IMG/VR virus record: IMGVR_UViG_3300023202_000142
Location: 62,001 to 126,000 of that record
Origin: a virus
Strand: one strand, 5' to 3'
DNA length: 64,000 nucleotides
A program made the translations under genes and the position numbers. Within the stretch, counting starts at the first letter, position 1. Every line of letters begins with the position of its first letter. Under the pieces are notes generated by a model. That model ran no database searches. It was not told where the DNA came from and saw only the letters and a program-made list of their open reading frames with translations. This document shows, one piece after another, positions 229 to 61,920 of the stretch.

Positions 229-244
229 CTGTACGATCCCTTCC

Positions 245-565
245 ATGTTTCGACTGTTATTCAGGGCCCTCAAGGGCATCGGTGAGATCATCCACCGTGC
301 ACCTGGCTGGAAGTGTTCAGATTGCGGAAAGGCCATGGCGCCCGGCCATCGGTGCATCAACGTTCACGTTCTTCCGGCGAAGCCACAATCGCGTCGCTAC
401 CCGGTGGCTAAAACACCATTCAGGATGGTGTTCCATCCTACAGGGGCGGTCCGGCGAACCGTGTTTATCGGGACGACTCTTTCGGCAGAGCGTTCAGGGG
501 GAGCCAAGGGGTGTCGACCCACTGAGCCCGATCGCCTGGGCGGCCAGCTCCTCAAGACGCTGTAG
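245..565 (+). CDS. Doubtful small ORF with a CxxC...C motif
   Basis: A 106-codon frame whose first 40 residues look protein-like: MFRLLFRALKGIGEII followed by CSDCGKAMAPGHRC, a possible zinc knuckle. The C-terminal half is arginine-rich and looks like out-of-frame reading, and no convincing ribosome site precedes the ATG. Otherwise the stretch 229-662 shows only a short hairpin, GTCTGA-GG-TCAGAC, at 577-590. It may be a decayed gene whose start survives. No function is proposed. Confidence 0.25.
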   Translation: MFRLLFRALKGIGEIIHRAPGWKCSDCGKAMAPGHRCINVHVLPAKPQSRRYPVAKTPFRMVFHPTGAVRRTVFIGTTLSAERSGGAKGCRPTEPDRLGGQLLKTL

Positions 566-662
566 CGTTGCTTCGGGTCTGAGGTCAGACTATTCTCGGT
601 CCGAGGAAGGATTCAAGGCCACAAGATGAGCGGTGGTCGTCGATCAGCCGCGGGAGCCTAGC

Positions 663-3677: not shown

Positions 3678-4148
3678 ATGCGCAACCCAGTACGAGCCAA
3701 GTTCAGAATTCTCAAGAAAACCGTCGACTGGCGAGGCACCGCGATCTACGAATTCGCGCCCGTCCTCAAGGACTCGGACGACGAATCAGAGAACTCGCTG
3801 TTCTGGTCTGCATCCCCATCCGGCGAGATGCAGCTCACCTTCAAAGAGGACCCCAAGCACGACATCGGGGCTTACTACTACCTCGACTTCACCCCCGTCG
3901 AACTCAGCGGACCCCCCAAGGAAGATCCCAGGCAGATCTGGGGCGTCGACAAAGTGACGCGGCACTTCGGCGGCCAAACCGATGTCCGTATGAGCCCGCG
4001 TGGAGGACCGCTGCTGAGCTGGAGTTCGTATTTCCAGGTCCAGATCGATCACGAGAAAACCGAGGCTCACGATTCATTCGGGGACGGGTCTGAGCCGGAC
4101 AATCACTGGACGCTGGACATCACCTTCGCTGAACCCAGTGACGACTAG
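3678..4148 (+). CDS. Unknown acidic beta-rich protein
   Basis: A 156-residue protein with start ATG 3678 preceded by CAGGAG. It is rich in Asp/Glu, Trp, Tyr and Phe (GAYYYLDFTPVEL, SWSSYFQVQIDHE, HWTLDITFAEPSDD), giving a beta-sandwich-like pattern. No known family is evident. It is isolated: a terminator lies upstream, and its stop codon overlaps the stop of a leftward gene, so it is probably expressed from its own promoter in 3600-3677, which I cannot pick out. Confidence 0.7.
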   Translation: MRNPVRAKFRILKKTVDWRGTAIYEFAPVLKDSDDESENSLFWSASPSGEMQLTFKEDPKHDIGAYYYLDFTPVELSGPPKEDPRQIWGVDKVTRHFGGQTDVRMSPRGGPLLSWSSYFQVQIDHEKTEAHDSFGDGSEPDNHWTLDITFAEPSDD

Positions 4149-5458
4149 GCGGCCTCGGCGCAACCATCGTCTTGCTCCGCCTCTCGTTTCGCCTTGCGGC
4201 GCTCACGCGCCGCCTTGTTGCGGCAGGGGCGGCAGTAGGACTGGGGTTTCGTCCGGTTGTACCGCAGACCAAAGCGCTCATCGACGTTGGCGATTCCGGT
4301 CGCGGTCTCACCGCAGCAGGGGCACTCGGCCTCCATCGGGTCTTCGAGCATCTCCATCACTTCGATCCACGCGGCATCAAATCCGCGACCGGATTTCTCG
4401 GTGACTACTGCCGGGGCGGCGACGAGAAACTCTTCAACAGCCGGGTATCCTTCTCGTCGAGTCCTCAGTTTGACGACGTGGTCTTCAACCTCGCCTCGAC
4501 ATGCAAGTTCCTCGACAACCTCAGCCCGGGAGCCGTCGAAGATCTTCTCGATCTTCCTGCCGGTGTAACCGCGTCGCGTCGCGTCTTTCTTCGAGGGCTT
4601 AAAGACCCGTCGCATCCGATAGACGGCCCAGGGCCGGGCTTCGTCGGTCGACAGTTCTTTGAAGCGCCGCAGCGCCTCGATGTTGCCGGATCGCTCGACC
4701 AGTTCGCGCATCGAACGCGTTTTGAAGAGCTTCATCCGGGGATTGAATCGCAGCGCGATTTCCTCCATCTCCAGGGCCCGGGCAACCTCTTCGGGCTCTT
4801 CCTTCCATCGCGACTGAACTCCACAGTCTGGCCGAGCGAAGGGGCAGAACACGCAGGCCGACTTCCGCCACCGCACTCCGGTAACGCTCTCGATGTAGTC
4901 GACACAGGCAGCACGATCCCAGCCCCAGTCGATCAAGGGGTAGCTGGGCTCACGACCTGGCACGGTTCCGAAGGTCTGGTCCTTCTCGACACGTCGTTCC
5001 TCACCCTTAGCGAAGCCGATGACATGGGTGTAAGGCGCACCATCCAGGAAGCCCTCGATCCATTCATCGAGGACGTACCCCTTGAACTTCAGGCTGCACT
5101 TCCGGGTTCCGCCGGTGGTTGGAATTGTTGCGGCCTCAACCATTTCGTCAGACAGCTTGTAGGCGCCGTCGAGGTGAAGTTCGGTAGGCTCCGTGGAGTC
5201 GTCGAGAACAACGATGCCGTCCGACGTGAATCGGCCGCCCTTGGCGACCTGGACATAACGGATCCCGTGGGCGCGCATGCGCGGGAGTACGTGCTCGCGC
5301 ACGAGCGCGCCCGAGCTGGTGAATTCGTTTCCAGTCATCGACGTAATGACAACCAGTTCGTCGAGCGGACAGGGCCGGGTTTCGGGTTCCTCGATCCAGC
5401 GCAACAGGATGGCTGTGGAGTCGACACCCATGCCGTAGCTGAGTATCACTTGAGTCAT
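4145..5458 (-). CDS. PP-loop ATPase (PAPS reductase-like) with C-terminal zinc knuckle
   Basis: A 437-residue protein. I chose ATG 5458 because AAAAGGAGGTAGCG precedes it and the PP-loop starts at residue 5: LSYGMGVDSTA, a variant of SGGxDS. KCSLKFK (about 100) and CVFCPFARPDCG (about 190) are Cys motifs found in PAPS-reductase-like proteins. The C-terminus (about 370-420) has CPCCGE, then FGLRYN and YCRPC, a knuckle also present at the N-terminus of the gene at 7597. Such enzymes activate a substrate with ATP for sulfur or nitrogen transfer. With no sulfate-assimilation neighbours, DNA or tRNA modification is more likely than cysteine synthesis (inference). It has its own promoter at 5487-5515. 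Confidence 0.85.
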   Translation of the reverse strand: MTQVILSYGMGVDSTAILLRWIEEPETRPCPLDELVVITSMTGNEFTSSGALVREHVLPRMRAHGIRYVQVAKGGRFTSDGIVVLDDSTEPTELHLDGAYKLSDEMVEAATIPTTGGTRKCSLKFKGYVLDEWIEGFLDGAPYTHVIGFAKGEERRVEKDQTFGTVPGREPSYPLIDWGWDRAACVDYIESVTGVRWRKSACVFCPFARPDCGVQSRWKEEPEEVARALEMEEIALRFNPRMKLFKTRSMRELVERSGNIEALRRFKELSTDEARPWAVYRMRRVFKPSKKDATRRGYTGRKIEKIFDGSRAEVVEELACRGEVEDHVVKLRTRREGYPAVEEFLVAAPAVVTEKSGRGFDAAWIEVMEMLEDPMEAECPCCGETATGIANVDERFGLRYNRTKPQSYCRPCRNKAARERRKAKREAEQDDGCAEAA

Positions 5459-5486
5459 CGCTACCTCCTTTTGTGGGGTCAGTGAG

Positions 5487-5524: not shown

Positions 5525-5773
5525 ATGTGGGTCCGAAGTGACGCTGAAGGGGTTTTCGAGCTGAGCGAAGTTGACGGGATCTGGATTGACCACGAGGGGT
5601 CTCTGCCGACTCTCTACATCACCAGGCGCAACAGTGGCCGCCCTGTCGCGATGATGAGCCACCGGGACCCAACGGCCCTCTCCGAGGTCAAGAAAGGACT
5701 GGAGAAGGCCCTGGGCGTCCATGAGGGCGCCCACGACATCGCGTCATTCAAGAGCTACGATTATCGCTATTGA
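5525..5773 (+). CDS. Unknown small protein
   Basis: An 82-residue protein from ATG 5525, preceded by AAGGAG. That ribosome site overlaps the -35 element of the divergent promoter, so the two genes are packed back to back. The sequence MWVRSDAEGVFELSEVDGIW suggests a short beta-sheet domain followed by a helix (ALSEVKKGLEKALGV). No family is recognised. It ends by overlapping the 3' end of the next leftward gene by 26 bases. No rightward promoter is obvious, and the palindromic GTGCAC region may fire both ways. Confidence 0.65.
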   Translation: MWVRSDAEGVFELSEVDGIWIDHEGSLPTLYITRRNSGRPVAMMSHRDPTALSEVKKGLEKALGVHEGAHDIASFKSYDYRY

Positions 5774-6239
5774 GACAGTCTTCCGGGGTTACTTCGAGAT
5801 CCCGGAACAGCATGCGGAGAACAGCTTCCGCGGTCGAAGCCCGATTAGCGGCATCACTGATGATTTCCTCGCCCAACTCGGGATTGTCTGAGAAGTGATC
5901 TCGAACCTTCGCCTTGACCTCTTCGGTCATCACGTTGCCAGCCTTCTCGACCAACTCGCCGAGACGTTCTCGGCCGACATCTGCCCAGTTCATCGCGTTC
6001 TTCGAGCCCCTGCCGCTCAATGAGCCGTCCGCGTTAACGGTCAGCCAGCGTTTCGACTTCTGCCATTCTGAGAAGCCACGGCGACCGCAGGTTCGATACT
6101 TCGAGTTGGGGTAGATTCGCACGACATCGTCACCAGCCCAGACGTTCGCATCGAGCCAGCGCGAGTTGTTGCTCGCCCGGTTGAGTGCGACGAGAACTTC
6201 GCCGTGTCGCTTTCGCTCTGCAACGGTCATGTCGGTCAT
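5748..6239 (-). CDS. Unknown protein
   Basis: A 163-residue protein from ATG 6239, after CAGGAGGTAGCG, rather than the longer upstream frame, which would run through the leader hairpin and promoter. The N-terminal half contains WLDANVWAGDDVVRIYPNS and YRTCGRRGFSEWQ. The C-terminal half is helical and acidic (ELGEEIISDAANRAS). Arg/Trp-rich strands hint at nucleic-acid contact, but nothing is recognised. It has its own promoter (6287-6314) and leader hairpin. Confidence 0.7.
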   Translation of the reverse strand: MTDMTVAERKRHGEVLVALNRASNNSRWLDANVWAGDDVVRIYPNSKYRTCGRRGFSEWQKSKRWLTVNADGSLSGRGSKNAMNWADVGRERLGELVEKAGNVMTEEVKAKVRDHFSDNPELGEEIISDAANRASTAEAVLRMLFRDLEVTPEDCLNSDNRSS

Positions 6240-6255
6240 CGCTACCTCCTGTCGC

Positions 6256-6716: not shown

Positions 6717-7046
6717 CTATCGGTCGTATCGAGCCAGTTCGTCAGCCAGCGCTGCCGTTGCCGTTTCGACGGCAACGTGAGCGTCATGCATTCGATCCTC
6801 GAACCCTTCAGCGAGCTTGACGCCTCGCTCGTAGAGATCGGTGTAGGCAGCGGCGTTCTTCACGGCCTCATGGAGGGCGCGACAGGCATCGAACAAGCCG
6901 GGGTTCTCTTCCAGGACCCAGCGGGCAAGAACCCAAACGTTTCGCCAGCCCCACTCCCAGTGGGGCATGGCGCTGAACGCCGCCTCCGAGACGTAGGCGA
7001 CCGCGTTGGTATCCGCAGCCACGGTCATGTTGGTCACTTCGGTCAT
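6717..7046 (-). CDS. Unknown helical protein
   Basis: A 109-residue protein from ATG 7046 behind AGAGGAGGTAGTC. It is alanine-rich and helical (FDACRALHEAVKNAAAYTDLYERGVKL, then HVAVETATAALADELARYD) with a Trp-rich segment HWEWGWRNVWVLARWVL near residue 30-45 that could be a hydrophobic binding surface. Function is unknown. It is the first gene of a two-gene leftward unit with the conserved promoter and ACCCC hairpin. Confidence 0.68.
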   Translation of the reverse strand: MTEVTNMTVAADTNAVAYVSEAAFSAMPHWEWGWRNVWVLARWVLEENPGLFDACRALHEAVKNAAAYTDLYERGVKLAEGFEDRMHDAHVAVETATAALADELARYDR

Positions 7047-7065
7047 GACTACCTCCTCTGAAAAC

Positions 7066-7596: not shown

Positions 7597-8595
7597 TTAC
7601 ATGTTCCACTCAGGAGTCATTTCGTCAAGGTCGACCTCTTCATCAGCTTTGACGGCTTCGAGAACCTCGGCCAACGAGAGGTTCTGTCGAAACGTGTGGT
7701 CGATGCGGTCTTCGACCGCGACGTACTCTTCGAGCAACTCCCGGTTGTGCTTCCCGGCGAGCACCAGGGCTTCCTTGGGGGCGAAGATGCAGAACGCGCA
7801 ACTCAGTCGCGGCATCCCCAGGTCGTAGGCCGGGTGGTGGGGAACGCCGGAGGCCCGAATCGTGGCCCAGACCTCGTGCTCCAGCCAGTGCTGAATCGGC
7901 AGCCAGGAGTCGACGTGCTGATTCGAGTTCGACTTCCGGTTCTCGAACTGGGTCTTCTTGGCGCGAGCCGGGGATTCCTCGGCTCGCAGACCCATGCAGT
8001 CCAGAATCCGGCAAGGACGACAGTCAGCCTTCTCGGGGTTCACCTTGCGCCACTCGCGGGCAAGCTGAGTGAAGACCTTGAGGATCGGACCGCGCTTGAA
8101 CTCCGAAGTGCACCAACGAGCGGCCGACGACGGCCAGGCCCCGCGACGCTCCGCGTAGTCCAGGATGTCTCCGTAGGTCTCACCCTTGGAGTAGGTCTTG
8201 CCGTTAACCTTGCAGATTCCACCGATCCTGGACGTCACGATGAAGGGGCACCCGTAAGCTTTGGCCTGTTCTTCGGCCAGCTCGCCGGTTCCCTCCCATT
8301 CGACTTTGCCGAGATCGGCATGAATGACGACGACGCGATCAGCGATGCCAGCATCTGACGCCAACCCGTGGACGTAGTCGAGCATGGCCTGGGAGTCCTT
8401 CCCGCCGGACGACGACACCGCGATGACATCGTACTCGGTGAGGTCGGGAACGACCCCGGCCTCGAACGACTCACCTGCGAAGCAGCGTTTGCAGTACGTG
8501 GAGGGCTTCTCGCCGCCGTACCGAAGCCCGAAGACCTCCCGGCATTCGTCCTTGGTCTCAGCGCGGACACCGCACTTGGGACACTCGTGGTTCAT
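7597..8595 (-). CDS. PP-loop ATPase (PAPS reductase-like) with N-terminal zinc knuckle
   Basis: A 332-residue protein from ATG 8595 behind GGAGGTAGCAA. Residues 1-40 form a knuckle CPKCG, then VFGLRYG and YCKRC, matching the C-terminal knuckle of the gene at 4145. The PP-loop SSSGGKDSQAML follows at about 60, then VVIHADLGKVEW. RWCTSEFKRGP (about 155) and CRPCRILDCMGLRAEES (about 195) fit the PAPS reductase/DndC-like superfamily, and CAFCIFAP lies near 280. It probably adenylates a substrate for nucleic-acid modification (inference). It has a conserved promoter and leader hairpin. Confidence 0.87.
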   Translation of the reverse strand: MNHECPKCGVRAETKDECREVFGLRYGGEKPSTYCKRCFAGESFEAGVVPDLTEYDVIAVSSSGGKDSQAMLDYVHGLASDAGIADRVVVIHADLGKVEWEGTGELAEEQAKAYGCPFIVTSRIGGICKVNGKTYSKGETYGDILDYAERRGAWPSSAARWCTSEFKRGPILKVFTQLAREWRKVNPEKADCRPCRILDCMGLRAEESPARAKKTQFENRKSNSNQHVDSWLPIQHWLEHEVWATIRASGVPHHPAYDLGMPRLSCAFCIFAPKEALVLAGKHNRELLEEYVAVEDRIDHTFRQNLSLAEVLEAVKADEEVDLDEMTPEWNM

Positions 8596-8615
8596 TTGCT
8601 ACCTCCGTTGAGAGA

Positions 8616-8727: not shown

Positions 8728-8919
8728 TCAGCCGTTGACCTCTTCGACCACGGCTTTCGCGAACTCGGTGGGGTGACAGTGTTTGTTGCAGAACCCCATC
8801 TTGTCGAACTTCGACATTTTCATTACGGGGATTTCGTTGGTCGCTACGAAGTGCTCAAGGTCTTTGAAGTCCTCGTCACTCATGGCGTTGGCGGTGCTTA
8901 CGATCTCTTCGACAGTCAT
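8728..8919 (-). CDS. Unknown small protein
   Basis: A 63-residue protein from ATG 8919 behind CAGGAGGTAGCC. It is helical and acidic (MSDEDFKDLEHFVATNE) with a CNKHCHPTEF segment (about residues 44-53) that could bind a metal through two Cys and His. No family is recognised. It is a single-gene unit with its own promoter, leader hairpin and terminator, which suggests it is made independently and perhaps early. Confidence 0.65.
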   Translation of the reverse strand: MTVEEIVSTANAMSDEDFKDLEHFVATNEIPVMKMSKFDKMGFCNKHCHPTEFAKAVVEEVNG

Positions 8920-8939
8920 GGCTACCTCCTGTTGGGATT

Positions 8940-13540: not shown

Positions 13541-13849
13541 CTATCCAGAACACTTGAGTGCCAGACGGACATCCGATCCGGTGTCTTCGAGGACCACGGC
13601 GAAGGAGTTCCGCGAGGCGAAGCGCCGCCCGGTGTCGGGCGAGACGTTAACAACTCGGAACGAGTAGAGGACCTTGTGAGTGCCGACGCTGTAGAAGAGT
13701 CGACCGCGATCAGCATCTATCTCACTGGCGCAAGCGTCAGAGCCGACGACGAGAGTATCGCCTGCGGAGCGAACGCCGTGAACCCGGTGGGCGAGCCCGA
13801 GCGCTTCGAGCGCTTCGGAAAGAGGGACTGCTTCATCGAACCGTGCCAT
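13541..13849 (-). CDS. Unknown small protein
   Basis: A 102-residue protein from ATG 13849 behind CAGGAGGTAGCAA. A helical start (FDEAVPLSEALEALGLAHRV) leads into a beta-rich body (GDTLVVGSDACASEIDADRG, then KVLYSFRVVNVSPDTGRRFA, FAVVLEDTGSDVRLALKC). No family is recognised. It lies ten bases ahead of the recombinase and shares its promoter, ACCCC leader hairpin and likely regulation. Confidence 0.68.
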   Translation of the reverse strand: MARFDEAVPLSEALEALGLAHRVHGVRSAGDTLVVGSDACASEIDADRGRLFYSVGTHKVLYSFRVVNVSPDTGRRFASRNSFAVVLEDTGSDVRLALKCSG

Positions 13850-13868
13850 TTGCTACCTCCTGGTGAGT

Positions 13869-25662: not shown

Positions 25663-27132
25663 ATGGAACTGATTAAGGAAACCTTCAAGGGCGTTGAGAT
25701 CGAGGTAGAGCCTGATGGTTCGTTTCGCTGTCTCGGCCCTGATGGCTGGAAGATGGAGGGTGTCGAACCCCTTGGTCCGACCGAGGCACTTCGGGAGGCC
25801 AGGGTGTTGGCTTCACGGAGGGCGGACAAGGTGGAAGCCGCTGGGGCTGGGTTCGCATTTGAGTGGAATGACGAGCAGCTCGCAGCGATCGAAGCGATGA
25901 TCGACTGGTGGAATAACGGCTCGGAGTCGTTCTTTGGCCTCTTCGGTTACGCCGGGACCGGTAAAACATCGGTGGTTCAGGAGGTCTGTTCGAGGTTGGG
26001 CAGGTCGCAGTTCAATACTGCGATGGCGGCGCCGACGCACAAGGCGGTTGGTGTGCTTGCGCACACGTCTGCATCTCATGGCAGCTCCAGGTACCACTAT
26101 GCCACGCTCCATTCGCTTCTGAAGTTGCGCCCTCAGAAGGTTGAGGGTCGACAGGTGTTTCGTCGTGACCGACCAGACACAACTGCGCCGATCCAGAACT
26201 ATACGCTGGTCGTGCTTGACGAGTGCTCCATGGTCGACGAGGACCTCTGGAAGTACTTGAATGACGAGGTCCAGGAATCGATCTCGCAGATGTTTCAGGC
26301 GCCGATTCGTGTTGTCGTGATGGGGGATCCGCTGCAACTCCCGCCAGTCAACGACACTGGCGATGAGTCGCCGACCTTTGGTGTCGAGTCTCAGGTCACA
26401 CTGTCGGAGGTGATGCGATACGCCGGTGCGGTTGGTGAGGCGGTTGACGAAATCCGCGACAACATCAACTCGCCGAAGCCGTTGATTCCTGGCGATGCCT
26501 CGGACAGTTATGGTCAAATCGTGAACTACGATGCCCGTAACCGCTGGATGGACGACCTCATTGAGAACGCGCGTGTCGACCATTCTGTGAAAGCGTTGGC
26601 GTGGACGAACCGCTCAGTGAACAAAATCAACCGTGATGTTCGCCAGGCGATCTGGGGTCAGGATGTAGATGCGTTTGTCGCGGGCGAGCGCCTGGTCGCT
26701 GTTGAGGCATATGTTCAGCACAACAACGTCGTGCTGCAGACCGAGGCGGAGATCGAGGTTATCGATGCCCAGCAGGACCAGTTTGGCGGGATGGACTGCT
26801 GGGTGTTGCGGGTCTCAAATCTTCACACCGGCGAGGAGGTCAAGGTCTGGACGCTGGAGTCCAGGCAGCGACATGCCCTGGATCGCCAGCTCAAGCGTCT
26901 GGCGAGGGCCAAGAAGTGGGGTGAGTTCTGGCCGCTCAAAGAGAAGTTCGCGGTGTTGCGCCCGCCCTATGCGACGACGGTTCACAAGTCTCAGGGCTCC
27001 ACGTATCGCCAGGTGTATGTCTTACAGTCTGACATCGGCCGGGCAGGTCGCAGGGACAGCTTTCTGCGTAACCGTCTGATGTACGTGGCCTATTCGCGCA
27101 CGTCGAATGGGCTCATGATTTGTCACGACTGA
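25663..27132 (+). CDS. Dda/RecD2-like SF1 DNA helicase
   Basis: A 489-residue helicase from ATG 25663 (CAGGAGG upstream). An N-terminal extension (1-60) precedes the motor. Motif I is FGYAGTGKTSVVQE (about 97), motif II LVVLDECSMVD (about 184), and motif III VVMGDPLQLPPV. The C-terminal motor has TTVHKSQGSTYRQVYV and NRLMYVAYSRTSNGL. This is the layout of T4 Dda, a 5'-3' helicase that helps start replication and clears proteins from DNA. Upstream, GTGCAC at 25625 may mark its promoter. Confidence 0.9.
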   Translation: MELIKETFKGVEIEVEPDGSFRCLGPDGWKMEGVEPLGPTEALREARVLASRRADKVEAAGAGFAFEWNDEQLAAIEAMIDWWNNGSESFFGLFGYAGTGKTSVVQEVCSRLGRSQFNTAMAAPTHKAVGVLAHTSASHGSSRYHYATLHSLLKLRPQKVEGRQVFRRDRPDTTAPIQNYTLVVLDECSMVDEDLWKYLNDEVQESISQMFQAPIRVVVMGDPLQLPPVNDTGDESPTFGVESQVTLSEVMRYAGAVGEAVDEIRDNINSPKPLIPGDASDSYGQIVNYDARNRWMDDLIENARVDHSVKALAWTNRSVNKINRDVRQAIWGQDVDAFVAGERLVAVEAYVQHNNVVLQTEAEIEVIDAQQDQFGGMDCWVLRVSNLHTGEEVKVWTLESRQRHALDRQLKRLARAKKWGEFWPLKEKFAVLRPPYATTVHKSQGSTYRQVYVLQSDIGRAGRRDSFLRNRLMYVAYSRTSNGLMICHD

Positions 27133-27159
27133 AATGGTGAAGGCTGTGCACTTTTTACC

Positions 27160-27186
27160 TTGACGGTTGTGAAGCTCGTGCATAAG
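27160..27186 (+). promoter_or_regulatory. Promoter of the candidate non-coding RNA
   Basis: Plus strand: TTGACG, 15-16 bp spacer, CATAAG/ATAAGG, with GTGAAGCTCGTGCAT in the GTGCAC position. It is a rightward example of the promoter class otherwise seen on leftward genes. Transcription would start near 27190. Confidence 0.7.
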
Positions 27187-27189
27187 GTC

Positions 27190-27496
27190 TCAGTAACGGA
27201 CAGGGACTCAACGCTTCCCATCCTGTCCGGGTTTTGGCCCTTCGGGGCATCGAGTCAGGAGTTGCGTATCTGCGGGAAGAAATGATGAGAGTCTGTAGAG
27301 GGTTAAATCGCTGCATCTTTTCCTTCCGGCCAGCCTTGGCCTTAAAGGGTGCGATGCTACCTCCCCCTTGAAGATCAGACTGGAGTCTCAGGAGCAGCTC
27401 GCCCCTGGACAGGGCCGGACTAACGGGTAGGGGTATCCGCCGTCCCGCGAGCAAACTAGACCCGTCGCCTGCTGGACAGGCGGCGGGTCTTTGTTT
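27190..27496 (+). ncRNA. Candidate structured non-coding RNA of about 300 nt
   Basis: The 375 bases between two coding regions hold a promoter (27160), no protein-like frame on either strand, several helices and a strong terminator (27459-27496). Helices include CGGACAGG/CCTGTCCG near 27197-27233. A longer one at about 27311-27357 consists of GCATC, CCTT and GGCCA paired with TGGCC, AAGG and GATGC around loop GCCT. It does not match tmRNA, 6S or RNase P features that I know. It could be a phage regulatory RNA, or a long leader that attenuates the genes from 27508. Confidence 0.55.
27459..27496 (+). terminator. Rho-independent terminator of the candidate RNA
   Basis: Thirteen-pair stem GACCCGTCGCCTG/CAGGCGGCGGGTC with one T-G pair and loop CTGGA, followed by TTTGTTT. 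It lies only 12-50 bases before the next possible starts. Confidence 0.9.
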
Positions 27497-27507
27497 ACAC
27501 ATTTCAC

Positions 27508-28002
27508 ATGAACGTTATCGAGCCAGGTCCGGCGCGAGCGGGTTACATGACCGTGTTTTGCCCGAAGTCGGGCAAACACATTTCGTCGATCCAGTGCGAA
27601 ACGGTCTGTTTCAGCTTTTCGCACTCGTTTGACGCGGCGTGTCGTCATCGTCAGCAGTGTCCGGTGTGGCGTGGCATGGTTGGGATGCGAAACGGTGTGC
27701 TTGAGATGCCCGTGCAGGAGATTACAATGTCAGAAGAACTCACCGAGGCCCAGGAGTCGGCGTTCGATATGCTCGTCGAACTGGGTGGAGACGCGAATTG
27801 GGTGGCCGCGAAGGCGGTCGGCCATCATTCGGCAATCAGGGCGCTGGAGCGTCGGAACGTGATCCAGACCCGTGACATCGACGGAGAGGTTCAGGTCGCC
27901 CTTGCGGGCGTCCTCCTCAACGAGGAGATCGCAGATGCAGCAAGACAAGCAAGAGCAGAAACAGGAGACGCAGGGGCCGACGCCGAAAGTGAAGAGGAGT
28001 AA
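27508..28002 (+). CDS. Cys-rich N-terminal zinc-like domain with acidic helical C-terminus
   Basis: A 164-residue frame. ATG 27547 (MTVFCPKSGKHISSIQCETV) is an alternative start, and an internal ATG at 27727 (MSEELTEAQESAF) behind CAGGAG could give a separate 91-residue product. The first part has cysteines in FCPKSG, IQCETVC, ACRHRQQCP, which suggest a zinc ribbon. The last part is helical and ends in a Glu-rich tail. It begins directly after a terminator, so expression probably needs read-through or a promoter within the terminator area. Function is unknown. Confidence 0.62.
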   Translation: MNVIEPGPARAGYMTVFCPKSGKHISSIQCETVCFSFSHSFDAACRHRQQCPVWRGMVGMRNGVLEMPVQEITMSEELTEAQESAFDMLVELGGDANWVAAKAVGHHSAIRALERRNVIQTRDIDGEVQVALAGVLLNEEIADAARQARAETGDAGADAESEEE

Positions 28003-44340: not shown

Positions 44341-46394
44341 TCAAGATTGAGGGCGGCAGGGCCAGGTCTGTCAGGACCCCAGAGGAGGAACTGAACCTGC
44401 TTCGACAGAAGTGGGGCGCGTTCTCCGAGGAAGAGCAGCGGTTCATCATGGAGCTGATGAATCGGAGCGACAGCGATGCTGAGCGAATTCTCGCCGAGAT
44501 CAAATCGGCGCACTACCACCGCGAACCGGTGGACATCGATACTTTTCTGGACGATGAGTACTACTCTGGCCCAGGCGGGTCATCAGTTTACCCCAAGCTG
44601 CGCGAGGAGCTGCGCGAGATTTTTCGCGGCGACTACTCTGAGGTGATTCTCAGCGGTGGCATCGGCTGGGGCAAGAGCTATACGGCCACCTACGGCCTGA
44701 TGTATTCGATCTACCGCACCACTTGCTTGCGCGACCCCCAGTCTAGCTTCGGCCTCGCCCCGGGCACGATCATCTGGTTTGCGTTCCTGTCGATGTATCG
44801 AAAGCATGCCGGGGAGACGATCTTCGAGGACATTCGTACCAAGATCGAAGCGTCCCCCTATTTCTACGAACTGATGGATGACACAAAGGGGTCTGGATTC
44901 TCCAAGTATCAGGCAACGATCTCGAAGAACCTCAAGCTGATCTGTGAGTCCTCGACTGCGAACAAGGTCATCGGCCTTAACGTGTTCGGCGGCATGCTGG
45001 ACGAGGTCAACTTTGGCGAATCCGCCCGTGTCGCCAAGGATGCTGTGACGCTCAACACCGCCGGCAAAACCCCACCCACGAAGGTCGAGAAGGTCTACCG
45101 ATCGATCATCGCCCGCATCAACTCTCGCTTCATGCGCAATGGCTCGGTGCCCGGTGTGTTGTTCGTCGTCAGCTCGAAGAACAACGAGACCGACTTTACT
45201 CAGAAGCGCATCCAGGAGGCCCTGAATGATCCCAGCGTCTACGTCATGGATTTCCCGGAGTGGGAGACGAAGCCGCCCGAGAAATACAGCGGCGAGAAGT
45301 TTCGTGTGTTCTTTGGCGGCAAGACCATGAGGTCACGGGTGCTCAAGGGGGGCGAGGACCCACCGGAGGTCACTGACGATCTGCAGCGAATTGTCGAGGT
45401 CCCAGTCGAGCACAAGGAACAGTTTGTTGAGGGCGACATTGAGGTCGCCTTGCGTGATATTGCCGGTATCGCGGTTCCTCGCGTAATGCCGTTCATTCAG
45501 CGGACCGACGTCATCCACGGAATGTACTATGACCGGAAAGATCCGCTGCCTCTGAAATCCCTGCAGTGGGTCTCGGGCCGACAGGAGCCGTTCCGCTGGG
45601 ATGTGTTGTGTGAGTGCGGCAAGCCCAGGAAGCTTGGCGATCAGGTTGAAATCAACTGGGTGCCCAGGATCAACCCAGATGCACCACGTCACATCCACAT
45701 CGACCCATCAAAGAATGGCGACGCCACCGGGTTCGCGATGGGTCACATCGAGAAGATGGTCGAGGTCACTCAGCGCGACACGCATACTGGGGAACTCTAC
45801 AAGGAGCTGATGCCCCTGATCTATGTCGACATCGCCCTACAGGTGCTCCCGCCGGATGAGGGTGAGATTGAGATGGAGCTGTTGCGTAAACTGGTCTACT
45901 CGCTGACCGGTCATGGGTTCCCGGTGCACTACATTTCCACCGACCAGAATCAGACGGTGGACATGATCCAGCAGTTCGAGAAGAAAGGCTACCAGGCTGA
46001 GGTGCGCTCCCTGGACCGTAAGCCGACGGGCTACAAGCACCTCAAAAACGCGTTGTATCAACGCCGACTCCGGTGCTACAACTACCACCCGCTGAACGAG
46101 GAATTGGAGAACCTTCAATGGGATTCGGCTAAGGACAAGGTCGACCACCCGACTACACTGGCCGATGGCCGTGCAGGCTCGAAGGATGTGGCTGATTCGG
46201 TGGCCGGGGTTGTCTGGTCCTTGACTGACATGCAAACTGGCGCCCCACCCGTGGTGAAGCCTGACGAGGCGAGATCGAAGCCCGATCACCCCCTGGAGCA
46301 CTGGATGGACGTCGGACAAAATCCCAACGCGAGAGAGTCCGACGCCGGTCCACTTTTCGGTGACACGCCGTTCCTCTTTGGTGGGGGCGATTGA
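44337..46394 (+). CDS. terL: Terminase large subunit
   Basis: A 685-residue packaging motor from GTG 44337. The ATPase has Walker A LSGGIGWGKSYTATYG (about 103) and a Walker B-like MLDEVNFGE (about 222). The C-terminal RNase H-fold nuclease shows HIDPSKNGDATGFAMG (about 458) with the first catalytic Asp, IYVDIALQVLPPDEGEIEME, then HYISTDQNQTVDMIQQF and SKDVADSVAG with the final Asp. It cuts concatemers and drives DNA into the prohead through the portal encoded next. Confidence 0.92.
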   Translation: MIKIEGGRARSVRTPEEELNLLRQKWGAFSEEEQRFIMELMNRSDSDAERILAEIKSAHYHREPVDIDTFLDDEYYSGPGGSSVYPKLREELREIFRGDYSEVILSGGIGWGKSYTATYGLMYSIYRTTCLRDPQSSFGLAPGTIIWFAFLSMYRKHAGETIFEDIRTKIEASPYFYELMDDTKGSGFSKYQATISKNLKLICESSTANKVIGLNVFGGMLDEVNFGESARVAKDAVTLNTAGKTPPTKVEKVYRSIIARINSRFMRNGSVPGVLFVVSSKNNETDFTQKRIQEALNDPSVYVMDFPEWETKPPEKYSGEKFRVFFGGKTMRSRVLKGGEDPPEVTDDLQRIVEVPVEHKEQFVEGDIEVALRDIAGIAVPRVMPFIQRTDVIHGMYYDRKDPLPLKSLQWVSGRQEPFRWDVLCECGKPRKLGDQVEINWVPRINPDAPRHIHIDPSKNGDATGFAMGHIEKMVEVTQRDTHTGELYKELMPLIYVDIALQVLPPDEGEIEMELLRKLVYSLTGHGFPVHYISTDQNQTVDMIQQFEKKGYQAEVRSLDRKPTGYKHLKNALYQRRLRCYNYHPLNEELENLQWDSAKDKVDHPTTLADGRAGSKDVADSVAGVVWSLTDMQTGAPPVVKPDEARSKPDHPLEHWMDVGQNPNARESDAGPLFGDTPFLFGGGD

Positions 46395-48139
46395 TGGCTC
46401 CGAATCGCATCGCAGATGTTTGGCGCACTGTTCGCAATTTCTTCGCTCCTCAGCGCGATCAGATTCGCCGTATCGAGCAGGAGCGCTTTCCTGGCTCCTA
46501 CCCCCAGCAGTATGTCTATGCCTCTCGGGGCAAGTACTACGATTACTATCAGCAGTATGGCCAACAGGTCACTCACGACCTGCATCAGCGATTCTTGGAC
46601 TACGAGGACATGGACGACTACCCCGAGGTAGCGTCTGCGTTCGATAGCTACGCTGACGATGCCACGCAGCCTCAGATCTGGAAGGGGCGTAAGCGGATCT
46701 GGGTCGAGGGCACCAACGACAACGTTGTGAACGACTTGAACTTCGTGCTGCACAAGCAGCTCGGAGTCAACGACTTCCTCTGGGAGCAGACGCGGTATCT
46801 GGTCAAGTACGGGAACAACTATGAGCGCAGCTTCGTCAACGAGAACGGACTGGTTGCGACCGAACCCCTGCCGGCCGCTCTGACTCGTCGCGTGCACGAC
46901 CAGTACGGCAGCCTTGTTGGGTTCCTGTTGAGTCGCACCGGAGATTTCTCGATCAGCCCAACCCAGTTCCGGCACCTGTTGCAGCGTAACCGTGAAGAGG
47001 TCGCGGCCGGGAAGACACGCACCTATTACAGCTTCATCCACAGCACTGATGTCTTTGCGTTCGAGGACTGGGAGGTGACGCACTTCCGCCTGGTCGGCAA
47101 GGATCGCATCTCGGAGTACGGCTACAGCGTCGCTGAGCCTGCCAGGTGGGTGTTTCGCCGGCTGATCATGATGGAGGACTCTGCGCTGATCCATAAGCTG
47201 ACACGGGCGCCATCGCGTTTGGTGTTCTATGTCGAGACCGGGAACCTTCCGCCCCGCCAGGCTCTCCAGCATGTCCAGAAGGTCAGGGATTGGTACCAGC
47301 GCAAGAGGATCGTTAACCCGAAGACGGGTAAGCTGGACATGAGCTTCAACCCGCTGTCGATCGACGAGGATATCTTCATCCCGATGCACCGAGAGCGGGG
47401 TGAGTCGGTCCGTGTCGACTCGGTTATGGGCCCGGGCTACCAGCCCATGGATGATGTGGACTACTTCCGCAAGAAGATGGGCAAGGCGCTGAAGATTCCG
47501 AATTTCGGTCGTGATGATGATGTTCAGACCCGCCCGCTCTCGCAGGATGACATCCGGTTCGCGAGCGCGGTGATGCGTGTTCAGTCCGCGATCAAGGCCG
47601 GCTGGAAGAGAATGCTGTCGGTGCACCTTGTGGCAACTGGTCGCAGCCCCTCAGACACTGAGTGGGATGTTCACATGCCAATGCCCTCGGCGATTCTGGA
47701 GTTGGCCCGTATGGAGGTCCTCAGCGCCAAGAGTGACATTCTCTCCAGGATGCAGGAAAACATTTCGGTGCGGTGGATGCTTACCGAGCTATTCGGGTTC
47801 AGCGAGGACGAGGCTGTCAACCTCATGGTAATGCGTCAGGAAGAGCTGGACATGATGGCTGTGGCGGAGTTCGAGCGAGAGATGTTGCGTCAGAAGGCGT
47901 TTGAGTCCGAGGATGTCGATGAGGACAGGGTGCTCAAAGAGGTCCAGCAAAAGGTCTGGGCAAAGGTACGCGCGGGCGCATACGGAATGAGCCCGCGTAC
48001 GTACGAGGGCGGTCGTGACGACATGGATGCCGAGAAGTTTATCCATGAACTGCGCTCCAGGGATGCTGAGCTATTCGATCGGCTCGACATGCTTCGGGAG
48101 GGCCTCACCGTTGTCTCCAGGAAGCAGGACTTTGCCTGA
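46394..48139 (+). CDS. Portal protein
   Basis: A 581-residue protein from ATG 46394. It has the long helical stem/wing pattern of T4 gp20-type portals: RFLDYEDMDDYPEVASAFDS, then YADDATQPQIWKGRKRIWVE, VFRRLIMMEDSALIHKLTRA, VETGNLPPRQALQHVQKVRD, and the helical end with FGFSEDEAVNLMVMRQEELD. It forms the 12-subunit ring for DNA entry and exit. The position between terminase and core/protease genes is as in T4. Confidence 0.9.
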   Translation: MAPNRIADVWRTVRNFFAPQRDQIRRIEQERFPGSYPQQYVYASRGKYYDYYQQYGQQVTHDLHQRFLDYEDMDDYPEVASAFDSYADDATQPQIWKGRKRIWVEGTNDNVVNDLNFVLHKQLGVNDFLWEQTRYLVKYGNNYERSFVNENGLVATEPLPAALTRRVHDQYGSLVGFLLSRTGDFSISPTQFRHLLQRNREEVAAGKTRTYYSFIHSTDVFAFEDWEVTHFRLVGKDRISEYGYSVAEPARWVFRRLIMMEDSALIHKLTRAPSRLVFYVETGNLPPRQALQHVQKVRDWYQRKRIVNPKTGKLDMSFNPLSIDEDIFIPMHRERGESVRVDSVMGPGYQPMDDVDYFRKKMGKALKIPNFGRDDDVQTRPLSQDDIRFASAVMRVQSAIKAGWKRMLSVHLVATGRSPSDTEWDVHMPMPSAILELARMEVLSAKSDILSRMQENISVRWMLTELFGFSEDEAVNLMVMRQEELDMMAVAEFEREMLRQKAFESEDVDEDRVLKEVQQKVWAKVRAGAYGMSPRTYEGGRDDMDAEKFIHELRSRDAELFDRLDMLREGLTVVSRKQDFA

Positions 48140-48141
48140 TA

Positions 48142-48155
48142 GCACCCGGGTGCAG
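48142..48155. repeat. Palindromic 14-mer repeat, copy 4
   Basis: GCACCCGGGTGCAG, the only copy outside long coding sequence. It starts three bases after the portal stop, and its last G begins the GTG start of the next small gene. Confidence 0.85.
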
Positions 48156-48526
48156 TGGCGGCTTTCGACACATATTCGACCCATTCGACCTACGATCCGA
48201 CCCCGCCATCACGTGAGGTTGTGGTGGTTCGGGTCGTTGTTCAGGGGTCTGGATCGAACTTCCCGGACCCTCGCCTGCAGGAAACGGAGCGTCAACTCCG
48301 TGACCTCGCCAAGAAATTTGAAGCGGCCAAGGCGTTTGCGTCTTTTCTTGGCAGATTCCGTTGTGGGCCGCAGCCTGTCCGGCCGACACGCCAATACCCT
48401 CAGCTCCGCTTGCGGCGTGAGCCAGAGCAACCACGTGCACCGCCTTTAGTTTCGCCGGGGCGACCCGGCAGAAAGGGGTTGATTCGGCGCTCGATCGAGG
48501 ACAAACTGGCCCCCAACCTCTCATAG
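48155..48526 (+). CDS. Small Pro/Arg-rich protein, doubtful
   Basis: A 123-residue frame from GTG 48155. MAAFDTYSTHSTYDPTPPSR opens it, then VVVVRVVVQGSGSNFPDPRL and a helix LQETERQLRDLAKKFEAAKA. The final 55 residues are Arg/Pro-rich and ordinary-looking. There is no clear ribosome site other than the palindrome itself. It fills the gap between portal and core genes in the right frame and strand, so I keep it with moderate doubt. Function is unknown. Confidence 0.45.
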   Translation: MAAFDTYSTHSTYDPTPPSREVVVVRVVVQGSGSNFPDPRLQETERQLRDLAKKFEAAKAFASFLGRFRCGPQPVRPTRQYPQLRLRREPEQPRAPPLVSPGRPGRKGLIRRSIEDKLAPNLS

Positions 48527-48578
48527 CATGGGGCGTGCTGTGGGAGCAGACGGGCGCAACGCGGTGCGGAGTCAAGGA

Positions 48579-53533: not shown

Positions 53534-53566
53534 TTGATAATGTGTGCACGGATTGCACATTGTCAA
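53534..53566 (+). promoter_or_regulatory. Near-symmetrical GTGCAC promoter after the capsid gene
   Basis: Plus strand: TTGATA, 16-bp spacer with GTGTGCACGGATTG, then CACATT. The reverse strand reads TTGACA and CATTAT at an 18-bp spacing, so it could fire both ways; leftward firing would be antisense to the capsid gene. GCCCCG/CGGGGC at 53519 is a short hairpin closing the capsid gene. Confidence 0.6.
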
Positions 53567-59130: not shown

Positions 59131-59805
59131 ATGGACGATAGCTTCAAGCATGATGTTGCCATTGGAGTGACATCCGAGCTGAGTCAAAACTTCAGCCAAC
59201 AGGCCGAGGCCGCCCAGGTGGAAGTTCACCAGGCCGAGGGTGCTGTGCAAGCCTGTGCGCTAGGTTCTCAGCGCATCCAGCAGCTTTCGGAACATCTGGA
59301 CGCCGAACAGGACGAGATGTCCCCAGAGCAGTACGAGGCTGCCAAGAGGTGGGTGTCGAGGTGCTATGGGACGTTGATCAGTCTTCAGAATCAGGTGGAG
59401 GTCAAGATTCATACTCTGTCCGGGAAGGCTCTGGGGCTTCGGCAGGCGGCCGAGCAGGTCGAGAAGGAATGCCGGAAACACGAGAGTCGAAAAATCGCGG
59501 TACAGAACAGTGACGAGGAGGACCCCGCGCGCGCTCGCGTGCTTGGGCGTGACCGAACGCCCGGAACGAGACCGGAGAACTCACTGGCCGATCGGAAACG
59601 ACAGGAGCATGAAGCTGGGCCTGATGTGGATGAGGCCGCGGAAGTTGAACCCGAAGAGCGCGTAGCGGAGGATGTGGGTGTGCCCAGCGATCTGGAGACC
59701 TTGCTGAAGCGGGAACTGATTACCCTCGCCAAGAGCATGGATATCCCGTTCTACGGCACGAAGAGGGAAATCATCGAGAGGATTGAGGATGCCAACACCG
59801 GATAG
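59131..59805 (+). CDS. Coiled-coil protein with C-terminal SAP-like motif
   Basis: A 224-residue protein from ATG 59131 (GAGGAG upstream). A long helical region (about 15-120: QQAEAAQVEVHQAEGAVQAC, then VEKECRKHESRKIAVQ) precedes a disordered acidic linker. The end DLETLLKRELITLAKSMDIP and GTKREIIERIEDA is a SAP/HeH-type helix-extended-helix, often involved in DNA or protein contact. It lies among fibre genes, so an assembly or internal role is possible. It overlaps the next gene. Confidence 0.65.
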   Translation: MDDSFKHDVAIGVTSELSQNFSQQAEAAQVEVHQAEGAVQACALGSQRIQQLSEHLDAEQDEMSPEQYEAAKRWVSRCYGTLISLQNQVEVKIHTLSGKALGLRQAAEQVEKECRKHESRKIAVQNSDEEDPARARVLGRDRTPGTRPENSLADRKRQEHEAGPDVDEAAEVEPEERVAEDVGVPSDLETLLKRELITLAKSMDIPFYGTKREIIERIEDANTG

Positions 59806-60238
59806 GACACCGGGGGTCTCTCTGGAAGAGGGGCAGGTCTACGAGGACGAAGGGATCGATCCTTCCCAAGAGGGAGAGGTTCGGTACTCCGGTGGCCAGT
59901 TCAAGATGCAGGACTCGACTGGGATCTTCGATCCTCGTACCGGGGGTATCAGTGAAAGTCAGCATGAAGATCTTGACACCCTTGCTCACGACATTGTGGA
60001 GGACAGCTACGAGGAGCTGACCTACAGTGGCAGTAGGGTCACTAACTCTACTGTGTGGACTGATTCTGGGAAGACGACGAAGATTCGCGAGACTCAGATT
60101 TCTTACAGCGGCAACAAGATCACACAGACTATCGACATCCAGTATGATGCCGCCGGGGTCGAAGCCTACCGCCTGACTTCGGTGCTCACGTACTCGGGCA
60201 ACAAGATTCAGGACATTACTACTACGAGGACACCCTGA
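59789..60238 (+). CDS. Small beta-repeat protein
   Basis: A 149-residue protein from ATG 59789. The body contains four strands with a recurring Tyr-Ser-Gly: VRYSGGQFKMQ, LTYSGSRVTNS, ISYSGNKITQ and LTYSGNKIQD, the last three evenly spaced at about 30-35 residues. This resembles a short beta-sandwich or beta-helix unit of virion appendages. It sits between the SAP-like protein and the large fibre, overlapping both, and is probably part of the fibre system. Confidence 0.65.
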   Translation: MPTPDRTPGVSLEEGQVYEDEGIDPSQEGEVRYSGGQFKMQDSTGIFDPRTGGISESQHEDLDTLAHDIVEDSYEELTYSGSRVTNSTVWTDSGKTTKIRETQISYSGNKITQTIDIQYDAAGVEAYRLTSVLTYSGNKIQDITTTRTP

Positions 60239-61920
60239 TGCCGGTGATAGTGTCACAGGTCCTGATTGATGATTCGTCGGACAAAGTTATCTCCGGTGTC
60301 CAGATCTATGATCGTGACAATGGGGGTGTGTTATCAGTTCCTGCCGGATCTTCATTCCCCTCACCTGCGCAACCCGGTGAGCTGTTCTGGCGCACCGATC
60401 TTCAGACGCTCTATCGACGCAATGATGGTGACACTGCTTGGGACTCGGTGTCTGTTGATGACACGACCATAGATCATGGCCAGATCTCTGGCCTCGGTGA
60501 TGATGACCATCCGCAGTACCAAACAGACGTGCGAGCAGATACGTGGCTTGGTACCAAAGATACTGACGACCTCGCGGAGGGCTCGAATCTCTACTACACC
60601 GAGGGGCGTGTTTCTGCGAATTCCGATGTCGCAGCAAATACTTCACACCGGAGTACGACAGGTAACCCGCATTCCACCACCGCTGGAGATGTCGGAGCGG
60701 TTCCGACAAGTGAAAAGGGCGCCGCGAATGGGGTCGCGACGCTGGACGCCGGCGCGAAGGTGCCTGCCGCTCAGATTCCCGCTGTTGCGCTCCCCGAAGT
60801 CTACGTCGTCGCAGACGCCGCTGCGAGAACCGCGCTGAGCGTGCAGGAGGGTGACGAGGCAATCCAGCTTGATGACGGGTCGCACTGGATCTACGACGGC
60901 AGCTCGTGGTTCTTGCGCCCCGGCGTGGCGGTTCCCAATGATACGTTTAACGCGGTCGATACTGTGGGAGGCGTTTCGCTTGACGGTGGTTGGACTGATA
61001 TTCCGTTGACCGTTGTCAACCACGAGACATCGGGATCATTCACATTCAGCGCACCGTCTGCCGACATCACGGTCGAGAACCCCGGCGTCTATGTCATCGC
61101 GGCATACGGAAGCACTGAGAAGACAAGCGGTGGCGACCGTAGTGACTCTGAACTACGGCTGCTCGTCGACACGGGTGGAGGCTACAATGTCGTCTCGGGA
61201 GCGACAGTCCCGATGTACAACCGTAATGGCTCTGAGGGTGACAATAACGCGTCGGTTGTCGTTGCTCTTGATCTGTCTGCTTCGGCTCAGGTGAAGATCC
61301 AGATGCGGACCCTTGGAGGCTCGAATGTCCAGAGTCGGGCGGAAGGTTCGGGTATCACCATTACGTCGACACGGGGACAGAAGGGCGAGAAAGGTGATAC
61401 CGGCGCAGGCTCCAGTGTCAACGTCGAGGACGAGGGCGCAGCGATTGGCGGCGGGCCTCACGACACGCTGAACTTCACGGGCGATCTGGTCAGCGTCTCG
61501 GATGCTGGAAGCGGTCAGGCGGATGTCAGCATTGCGGCACCAGCGAAGGACGATCAACAGGTTTCGGCATCAAGCATCGTCACTGAGACTTCGACGACGG
61601 ATGTCGTGGTGCCGGGCATGTCGATCACGGTTTCGAACTCTGCTGACTATATGCTGTATTTCAGCGGGTTTGCCTCCACAGAGGCCGATGAAGTTCTGTA
61701 TGTCTCGCTCTACATCAATGGTGTGCAGATCGCCGATACTGAGCGTGGAATGAGCGCCCCCGGAGGCGGCCCCGTCAATGATGATGTGCAGGGCACGGTG
61801 GCGATCACATGTCTTAGCGTTGGGGCGACTGCGGGAGACGTAGTTGATGTCCGCTGGCGTGTGAGTGCTGGGAATACCGGTCAATTCGAAGGAAGAACTC
61901 TCACTGTGCTGGAGCGATGA
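60238..61920 (+). CDS. Tail fibre with collagen-like segment
   Basis: A 560-residue protein. The N-terminal domain (1-75) resembles baseplate-anchoring fibre starts (LFWRTDLQTLYRRNDGD). A repeat region has DHGQISGLGDDDHPQY, TWLGTKDTDDLAEGSNLYYT and HRSTTGNPHSTTAGDVGAVP, typical of fibre shafts. A C1q/TNF-like beta domain follows (TFNAVDTVGGVSLDGGWTD), then a short collagen run (GQKGEKGDTGAG, about 382). A second beta domain ends RTLTVLER. It is probably a receptor-binding fibre. Confidence 0.8.
   Translation: MPVIVSQVLIDDSSDKVISGVQIYDRDNGGVLSVPAGSSFPSPAQPGELFWRTDLQTLYRRNDGDTAWDSVSVDDTTIDHGQISGLGDDDHPQYQTDVRADTWLGTKDTDDLAEGSNLYYTEGRVSANSDVAANTSHRSTTGNPHSTTAGDVGAVPTSEKGAANGVATLDAGAKVPAAQIPAVALPEVYVVADAAARTALSVQEGDEAIQLDDGSHWIYDGSSWFLRPGVAVPNDTFNAVDTVGGVSLDGGWTDIPLTVVNHETSGSFTFSAPSADITVENPGVYVIAAYGSTEKTSGGDRSDSELRLLVDTGGGYNVVSGATVPMYNRNGSEGDNNASVVVALDLSASAQVKIQMRTLGGSNVQSRAEGSGITITSTRGQKGEKGDTGAGSSVNVEDEGAAIGGGPHDTLNFTGDLVSVSDAGSGQADVSIAAPAKDDQQVSASSIVTETSTTDVVVPGMSITVSNSADYMLYFSGFASTEADEVLYVSLYINGVQIADTERGMSAPGGGPVNDDVQGTVAITCLSVGATAGDVVDVRWRVSAGNTGQFEGRTLTVLER

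What the first reader, a model, noticed from the sequence alone, without database searches (positions are those of the whole stretch)
27160..27496. Promoter-to-terminator non-coding RNA of about 300 nt
Seen: a rightward GTGCAC-type promoter at 27160, no protein-like frame on either strand, several helices and a strong terminator at 27459-27496. It is the largest gap among otherwise overlapping replication genes. I see none of the marks of tmRNA, 6S or RNase P RNA. Inference: an independent phage RNA, or an attenuating leader for genes from 27508.
Basis: partly seen in the sequence, partly recalled or inferred. Interest (0 to 1): 0.74.

Follow-up and report, generated by a model that had tools for sequence, protein, structure and literature searches.

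The report
Phage RNA matching early-gene start sites
This bacterial virus carries a roughly 300-letter non-coding RNA with its own start and stop signals, and the RNA contains a stretch that pairs exactly with the ribosome-binding site shared by about two dozen of the virus's presumed early genes, which suggests a virus-made RNA switch that turns those genes down; this is a prediction from sequence, not yet shown by experiment.

Summary
A 375-nt non-coding gap (27133-27507) carries a promoter (27160-27188) and a strong terminator (27458-27490). The only syntenic relative found, L051 (helicase 62% identical), keeps gap, promoter and terminator, although the RNA body is only about half identical.

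The likely function came from outside the given coordinates. The phage has 26 gene starts with GGAGGTAG, 23 of them GGAGGTAGC, mostly behind early-type promoters. The RNA contains the exact complement GCTACCTCC (27356-27364), the genome's only occurrence of this word away from a gene start. No other 300-nt stretch away from those leaders matches so many of them (0 of 6,854). L051's RNA has GCTATCTCC at the same place, and L051's one recognisable early-type start reads GGAGATAGC: a matching change on both sides.

Best explanation, about 50%: a trans-acting antisense RNA masking the Shine-Dalgarno sites of an early regulon, possibly helped by a GGGG hairpin loop facing the ACCCC found in 73% of these leaders. 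Rivals: an independent RNA of other function, or an attenuating leader for gene 27508, which lacks a Shine-Dalgarno. Weak points: two sequences, no stability signal outside the terminator, one target in L051, no expression data.

The parts
27160..27188 (+). Promoter TTGACG-N17-TAAGGT (extended -10 TGC), member of the phage's early-type promoter family; a further GTGCAC lies at 27146-27151
   Evidence: kept in L051 as GTGCAC-N8-TTGACC-N17-TACTCT
27195..27497 (+). Predicted non-coding RNA, about 300 nt (start of transcription inferred from the -10)
   Evidence: Non-coding in six frames; conserved layout in L051
27197..27229 (+). 5' hairpin CGGACAGG / CCTGTCCG, followed by a possible UUCG hairpin at 27237-27248
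   Evidence: Sequence; predicted fold; a hairpin at the same place in L051. Weak evidence
27356..27364 (+). Anti-Shine-Dalgarno segment GCUACCUCC, exact complement of GGAGGUAGC
   Evidence: GCUAUCUCC in L051, matching its own GGAGATAGC start
27424..27439 (+). Possible hairpin CGGGUA-GGGG-UAUCCG; GGTAGGGGT is the longest interior word shared with L051; may contact ACCCC in early leaders
   Evidence: second contact is inference only
27458..27497 (+). Intrinsic terminator, 14-pair stem and T-rich tail
   Evidence: 11-pair terminator with changed stem in L051
27508..28002 (+). Downstream gene (164 aa, unknown function, conserved Cys residues) without a Shine-Dalgarno
25663..27132 (+). Upstream gene, Dda-like helicase
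5460..5468 (-). Predicted target: GGAGGTAGC start site of gene 4145-5458
6241..6249 (-). Predicted target: GGAGGTAGC start site of gene 5748-6239
7049..7056 (-). Predicted target: GGAGGTAG(T) start site of gene 6717-7046
8598..8606 (-). Predicted target: GGAGGTAGC start site of gene 7597-8595
8921..8929 (-). Predicted target: GGAGGTAGC start site of gene 8728-8919
13852..13860 (-). Predicted target: GGAGGTAGC start site of gene 13541-13849

Best explanation
The region encodes a stand-alone, trans-acting antisense RNA of about 300 nt. It is transcribed from the same promoter class as the phage's presumed early genes and ends at its own terminator. Its segment GCUACCUCC base-pairs with GGAGGUAGC, the shared Shine-Dalgarno-to-start motif of about two dozen early-type mRNAs, blocks ribosome binding and so turns those genes down as a group. 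A hairpin displaying GGGG may make first contact with the ACCCC that lies just upstream in most of these leaders, often in a hairpin loop; the order of the two elements fits antiparallel pairing. Shown from sequence: non-coding region, conserved promoter and terminator, complementarity and its uniqueness, matching change in the one relative. Inferred: that the RNA is made, that the genes are early, that pairing happens, that it represses, and the loop contact.
For: GGAGGTAGC occurs 24 times in the genome: 23 at gene starts and once antisense in this RNA. The RNA holds a 9-nt perfect complement to 23 of the 26 leaders; none of 6,854 other genome windows away from these leaders does (maximum 12), and 9 of 5,000 dinucleotide shuffles do. 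It is no better than average against 194 other Shine-Dalgarno leaders. The UAGC part of the motif is not explained by pairing with 16S rRNA (established anti-Shine-Dalgarno sequence), so something else should read it. L051's RNA has GCUAUCUCC at the homologous place (1 of 5,000 shuffles has it) and its one early-type start reads GGAGATAGCAAATG; estimated net pairing is -7.3 kcal/mol for the matched L051 pair, +4.1 for the window RNA on the L051 start, -7.2 on average for the window RNA on its own leaders. The longest interior words shared by the two RNAs are GGTAGGGGT and CTCCCCC, and ACCCC precedes 73% of these starts against 9% of 200 others. More distant relatives lack both the helicase-adjacent RNA and the extended start class.
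Against: Only two homologues; L051 shows only one early-type start, and that gene's counterpart in the window does not carry GGAGGTAGC. With G-U pairs allowed, about eight other places in the genome pair as well (34 of 5,631 overlapping windows; 18 of 3,378). The A that precedes GGAGG in 22 of 26 leaders is not matched (RNA has C). The RNA has no folding stability beyond chance outside the terminator, and the GGGG loop is largely paired in the window's own predicted fold. CUCCCCC and GGGG could pair within the RNA instead. The RNA shares its promoter class with its supposed targets, so a simple early-to-late shut-off is not obvious. The hypothesis was formed after looking at the data.
Confidence: 0.5

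Rival explanations
1. A stand-alone phage RNA with another function, for example binding a protein, another RNA or the ribosome, in which the anti-Shine-Dalgarno match is a coincidence or only a general CCUCC ribosome mimic.
For: Promoter and terminator conserved. CUCCCCC and GGGG keep nearly the same spacing (58 and 57 nt) and could form an internal pseudoknot. Several other genome places pair with the leaders when G-U is allowed.
Against: The complement extends past CCUCC through the phage-specific UAGC and changes together with the start motif in L051. No Rfam family matches.
Confidence: 0.27
2. An attenuating leader: transcription from 27160 normally stops at 27458-27497, and a signal lets it read through into gene 27508 and the replication genes beyond.
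For: The terminator stem ends 17 nt before the conserved start of gene 27508, which has no Shine-Dalgarno although 83% of window genes do. Its first nine codons keep 8 of 9 third bases against 42-45% later in the gene, so the RNA around the start is under constraint.
Against: No leader peptide is conserved. No antiterminator was recognised by inspection or in the pairwise structural alignments, although two sequences are too few to exclude one. It does not explain the match to the early start sites.
Confidence: 0.15
3. No function as an RNA: leftover intergenic DNA, perhaps an inverted and decayed early-gene leader, with a terminator that merely ends the helicase operon.
For: The fold is not significant without the terminator. 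The minus strand carries GGAGGTAGC and, further upstream, ACCCC, like an early leader.
Against: Promoter, anti-Shine-Dalgarno block, GGTAGGGGT and terminator are all kept in L051 at about half overall identity. There is no start codon or conserved frame on the minus strand.
Confidence: 0.08

Closest known systems
c4 antisense RNA of phages P1/P7 and sar RNA of P22
   Same: Phage RNAs listed as acting in trans on an mRNA of the same phage, the ant mRNA (PMC12197685 Table 1).
   Different: Listed with a single target (ant) and under 80 nt; here about 300 nt with about two dozen predicted targets sharing one start motif.
OOP and aQ of lambda, PAK_P4as15, sas of P22
   Same: Small phage RNAs that control phage genes by base pairing.
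   Different: Cis-antisense to one overlapping gene; here the targets lie elsewhere in the genome.
PreS, DicF, 24B_1, misc_4 and similar trans-acting phage RNAs
   Same: Separate transcripts acting, or predicted to act, on distant mRNAs.
   Different: Their listed targets are host mRNAs or single phage genes; none in that table acts on a multi-gene phage regulon.
T4 RegB nuclease and RegA repressor
   Same: Group-wise control of early mRNAs at the translation start; RegB cuts the GGAG of early Shine-Dalgarno sites and RegA competes with the ribosome on about 30 mRNAs (PMC3014915).
   Different: They are proteins; here the proposed agent is an RNA. No RegA match was found in this phage, but that search had no working control.

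Membership tests
Trans-acting antisense sRNA (mechanistic class) | Own promoter and terminator, no coding frame | tested here: met
Trans-acting antisense sRNA (mechanistic class) | Complementarity to target start sites beyond chance | tested here: met
   23 of 26 leaders, 0 of 6,854 windows, 9 of 5,000 shuffles; weaker when G-U pairs are allowed
Trans-acting antisense sRNA (mechanistic class) | Complementarity maintained by matching changes in relatives | tested here: inconclusive
   One matching change in one relative with one target
Trans-acting antisense sRNA (mechanistic class) | Expressed RNA that changes target expression | not testable with these tools
   No expression data
tmRNA, 6S RNA, RNase P RNA, ROOL, GOLLD and the other Rfam families | Match to the Rfam covariance model at its curated threshold | tested here: not met
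   the relative's RNA also reaches no family's threshold; no tmRNA by ARAGORN
Transcription attenuator or riboswitch leader of gene 27508 | Terminator between promoter and gene | tested here: met
Transcription attenuator or riboswitch leader of gene 27508 | Conserved leader peptide or conserved antiterminator pairing | tested here: inconclusive
   No conserved peptide; no antiterminator recognised, but two sequences are too few

The most novel reading that the evidence does not exclude
A phage-encoded antisense RNA that controls a whole early regulon by reading a shared two-part leader code (ACCCC plus GGAGGUAGC), an RNA counterpart of T4's RegB and RegA.
Probability: 0.42. Interest if true: 0.82.

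Novelty: new variant of a known kind. Interest (0 to 1): 0.62.

Why it matters
Large lytic phages must time and shut down their early genes; in T4 this is done by proteins. If this RNA does it through one shared start motif, phages have an RNA-based, regulon-wide way to run their infection programme. It would also give a simple search rule for the function of orphan phage RNAs: look for the complement of the phage's own extended start motif.

Tried and rejected
Known RNA families: none. DNA similarity to 50,697 phage records: none. Protein coding or leader peptide: rejected. Intron between helicase and next gene: rejected, because the helicase ends at the same C-terminus in L051. Leaderless promoter for 27508: no -10 at the required place in L051 (by inspection). 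Conserved fold from two sequences: my own structural aligner gave only the 5' hairpin, the GGGG hairpin and the terminator repeatedly; one parameter set gave mostly isolated pairs and was disregarded. Hybrid scoring with a loop-allowing duplex program gave unrealistically long duplexes and timed out; it was replaced by ungapped helices. Same design in distant relatives: G003, G005 and G009 have general AGGAGAAG-like starts, no extended class like GGAGGTAGC. Early leaders of this form elsewhere in IMG/VR: none. Another copy of the RNA core in IMG/VR: only L051. RegA: no match, but the control genomes gave none either.

Full report
What the window is. The window is positions 62001-126000 of a 185,324-base virus record, a tailed phage with a T4-like gene complement and 59% G+C. 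It has no DNA match among 50,697 phage records. Capsid and DnaB-like proteins reach relatives in IMG/VR. Only one contig has the same genes around the region: L051, 15,330 bases (DnaB 68%, helicase 62%, downstream protein 65% identical).

The observation. The gap 27133-27507 is non-coding on both strands by codon statistics and is the largest among the rightward replication genes. The promoter TTGACG-N17-TAAGGT at 27160 and the 14-pair terminator at 27458-27490 are really there. L051 has the same layout: GTGCAC-N8-TTGACC-N17-TACTCT, about 260 nt, an 11-pair G+C-rich terminator with TTTTTTTG, then the homologous start MNVIEP. The promoter belongs to a family with TTGAC and two GTGCA-like elements that heads many small genes; the pattern has 15 hits in 104 kb against 0.7 in shuffles. 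The fold is not significant apart from the terminator (z -1.6 with it, +0.99 without), so 'several helices' should not be counted as evidence.

What the RNA may do. Most genes behind this promoter family have a leader ending in AGGAGGTAGCNATG. The genome has 28 GGAGGTAG words: 26 at gene starts, one inside a gene, and one antisense in this RNA, at 27356-27364. The RNA therefore carries GCUACCUCC, a nine-base perfect complement to 23 of the 26 leaders. Of 6,854 other genome windows of the same length, away from these leaders, none does so (maximum 12), and 9 of 5,000 dinucleotide shuffles do. With G-U pairs allowed the RNA still ranks high (about 3.5 standard deviations), but 34 of 5,631 overlapping windows from a handful of places equal or exceed it; against 194 other Shine-Dalgarno leaders it is average. 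The preference for this gene class is therefore clear, while the uniqueness is moderate.

The relative. In L051 the homologous segment is GCUAUCUCC. On that contig one gene start has the early form, GGAGATAGCAAATG at 6142, next to a GTGCAC site, and it differs from the window's motif at exactly the base that differs in the RNA. Estimated net pairing energy is -7.3 kcal/mol for the matched L051 pair, +4.1 for the window RNA on the L051 start, and -7.2 on average for the window RNA on its own 26 leaders. This is one matching change with one target, so it is suggestive and not proof.

A second element. ACCCC occurs shortly upstream of 19 of 26 of these starts but of only 9% of 200 other Shine-Dalgarno genes. 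Where the promoter cassette is complete it sits in a hairpin loop whose stem varies in sequence (seen directly), and it is also present before some class members that lack the cassette. The longest interior word shared by the two RNAs is GGTAGGGGT, which can form a hairpin with a GGGG loop (99% unpaired in L051, but mostly paired in the window's own predicted fold). The order in the RNA (anti-Shine-Dalgarno, then GGGG) and in the mRNAs (ACCCC, then Shine-Dalgarno) fits antiparallel pairing. A CCCC-GGGG pairing inside the RNA, with spacing 58 and 57 nt, would explain the same conservation, so this second contact is only a proposal.

Mechanism and confidence. I judge a trans-acting antisense RNA that masks early Shine-Dalgarno sites most likely, at about 0.5. 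That the genes are early is an inference from promoter type, small size and position in the outer clusters. The RNA shares their promoter type, so it may act as a feedback brake rather than a late shut-off. The next candidates are an independent RNA of other function (0.27), an attenuating leader for gene 27508 (0.15; that gene has no Shine-Dalgarno and unusually conserved first nine codons), and no function (0.08).

Comparison with what is known. Phage RNAs that pair with phage mRNAs are known: c4 of P1/P7, sar of P22, OOP, aQ, PAK_P4as15 (PMC12197685). T4 controls early mRNAs as a group with proteins: RegB cuts GGAG and RegA competes with ribosomes (PMC3014915). In the sources searched (open-access papers only) I found no phage RNA proposed to control many phage genes through a shared start motif. 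No Rfam family matches. I therefore call it a new variant of a known kind, conditional on the mechanism.

Limits.

Noticed in passing
Window 5-15 kb (mostly minus strand); G000 3-31 kb, 52-55 kb, 168-182 kb: Presumed early-gene cassette repeated many times: promoter cTTGAC..GTGCA..GTGCACA, then a leader hairpin with varied stem and an ACCCC(G) loop, then AGGAGGTAGCNATG.
   Followed up: yes
27508-28002: Gene with no Shine-Dalgarno in a phage where 83% of genes have one; third bases of the first nine codons nearly invariant with L051 (8 of 9 against 42-45% later).
   Followed up: partly
27716-27729: A good internal Shine-Dalgarno (GCAGGAG) before an in-frame ATG inside gene 27508-28002, with GAGG at the same place in L051; a second, shorter protein may be made.
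   Followed up: no
53534-53566: Nearly palindromic promoter of the early family after the capsid gene, readable in both directions.
   Followed up: no
48140-48578: 439-nt gap without a clear coding signal between the 581-aa gene 46394-48139 and gene 48579.
   Followed up: no
Window 230-662; G000 59225-60000 and 60981-61853: Long gaps without predicted genes around the two tRNA-Lys genes; other tRNAs or RNAs may lie there.
   Followed up: no
G009:158989-161379 (L066); also G004 and G013: DnaB-like helicase interrupted right after the Walker A motif by what looks like an intein.
   Followed up: no
G003:29191-29479 and G009:170819-171192: Two relatives share a 289- to 374-nt gap between a ParB-like gene and a conserved 172/173-aa gene; possibly a partition site or another RNA.
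   Followed up: no
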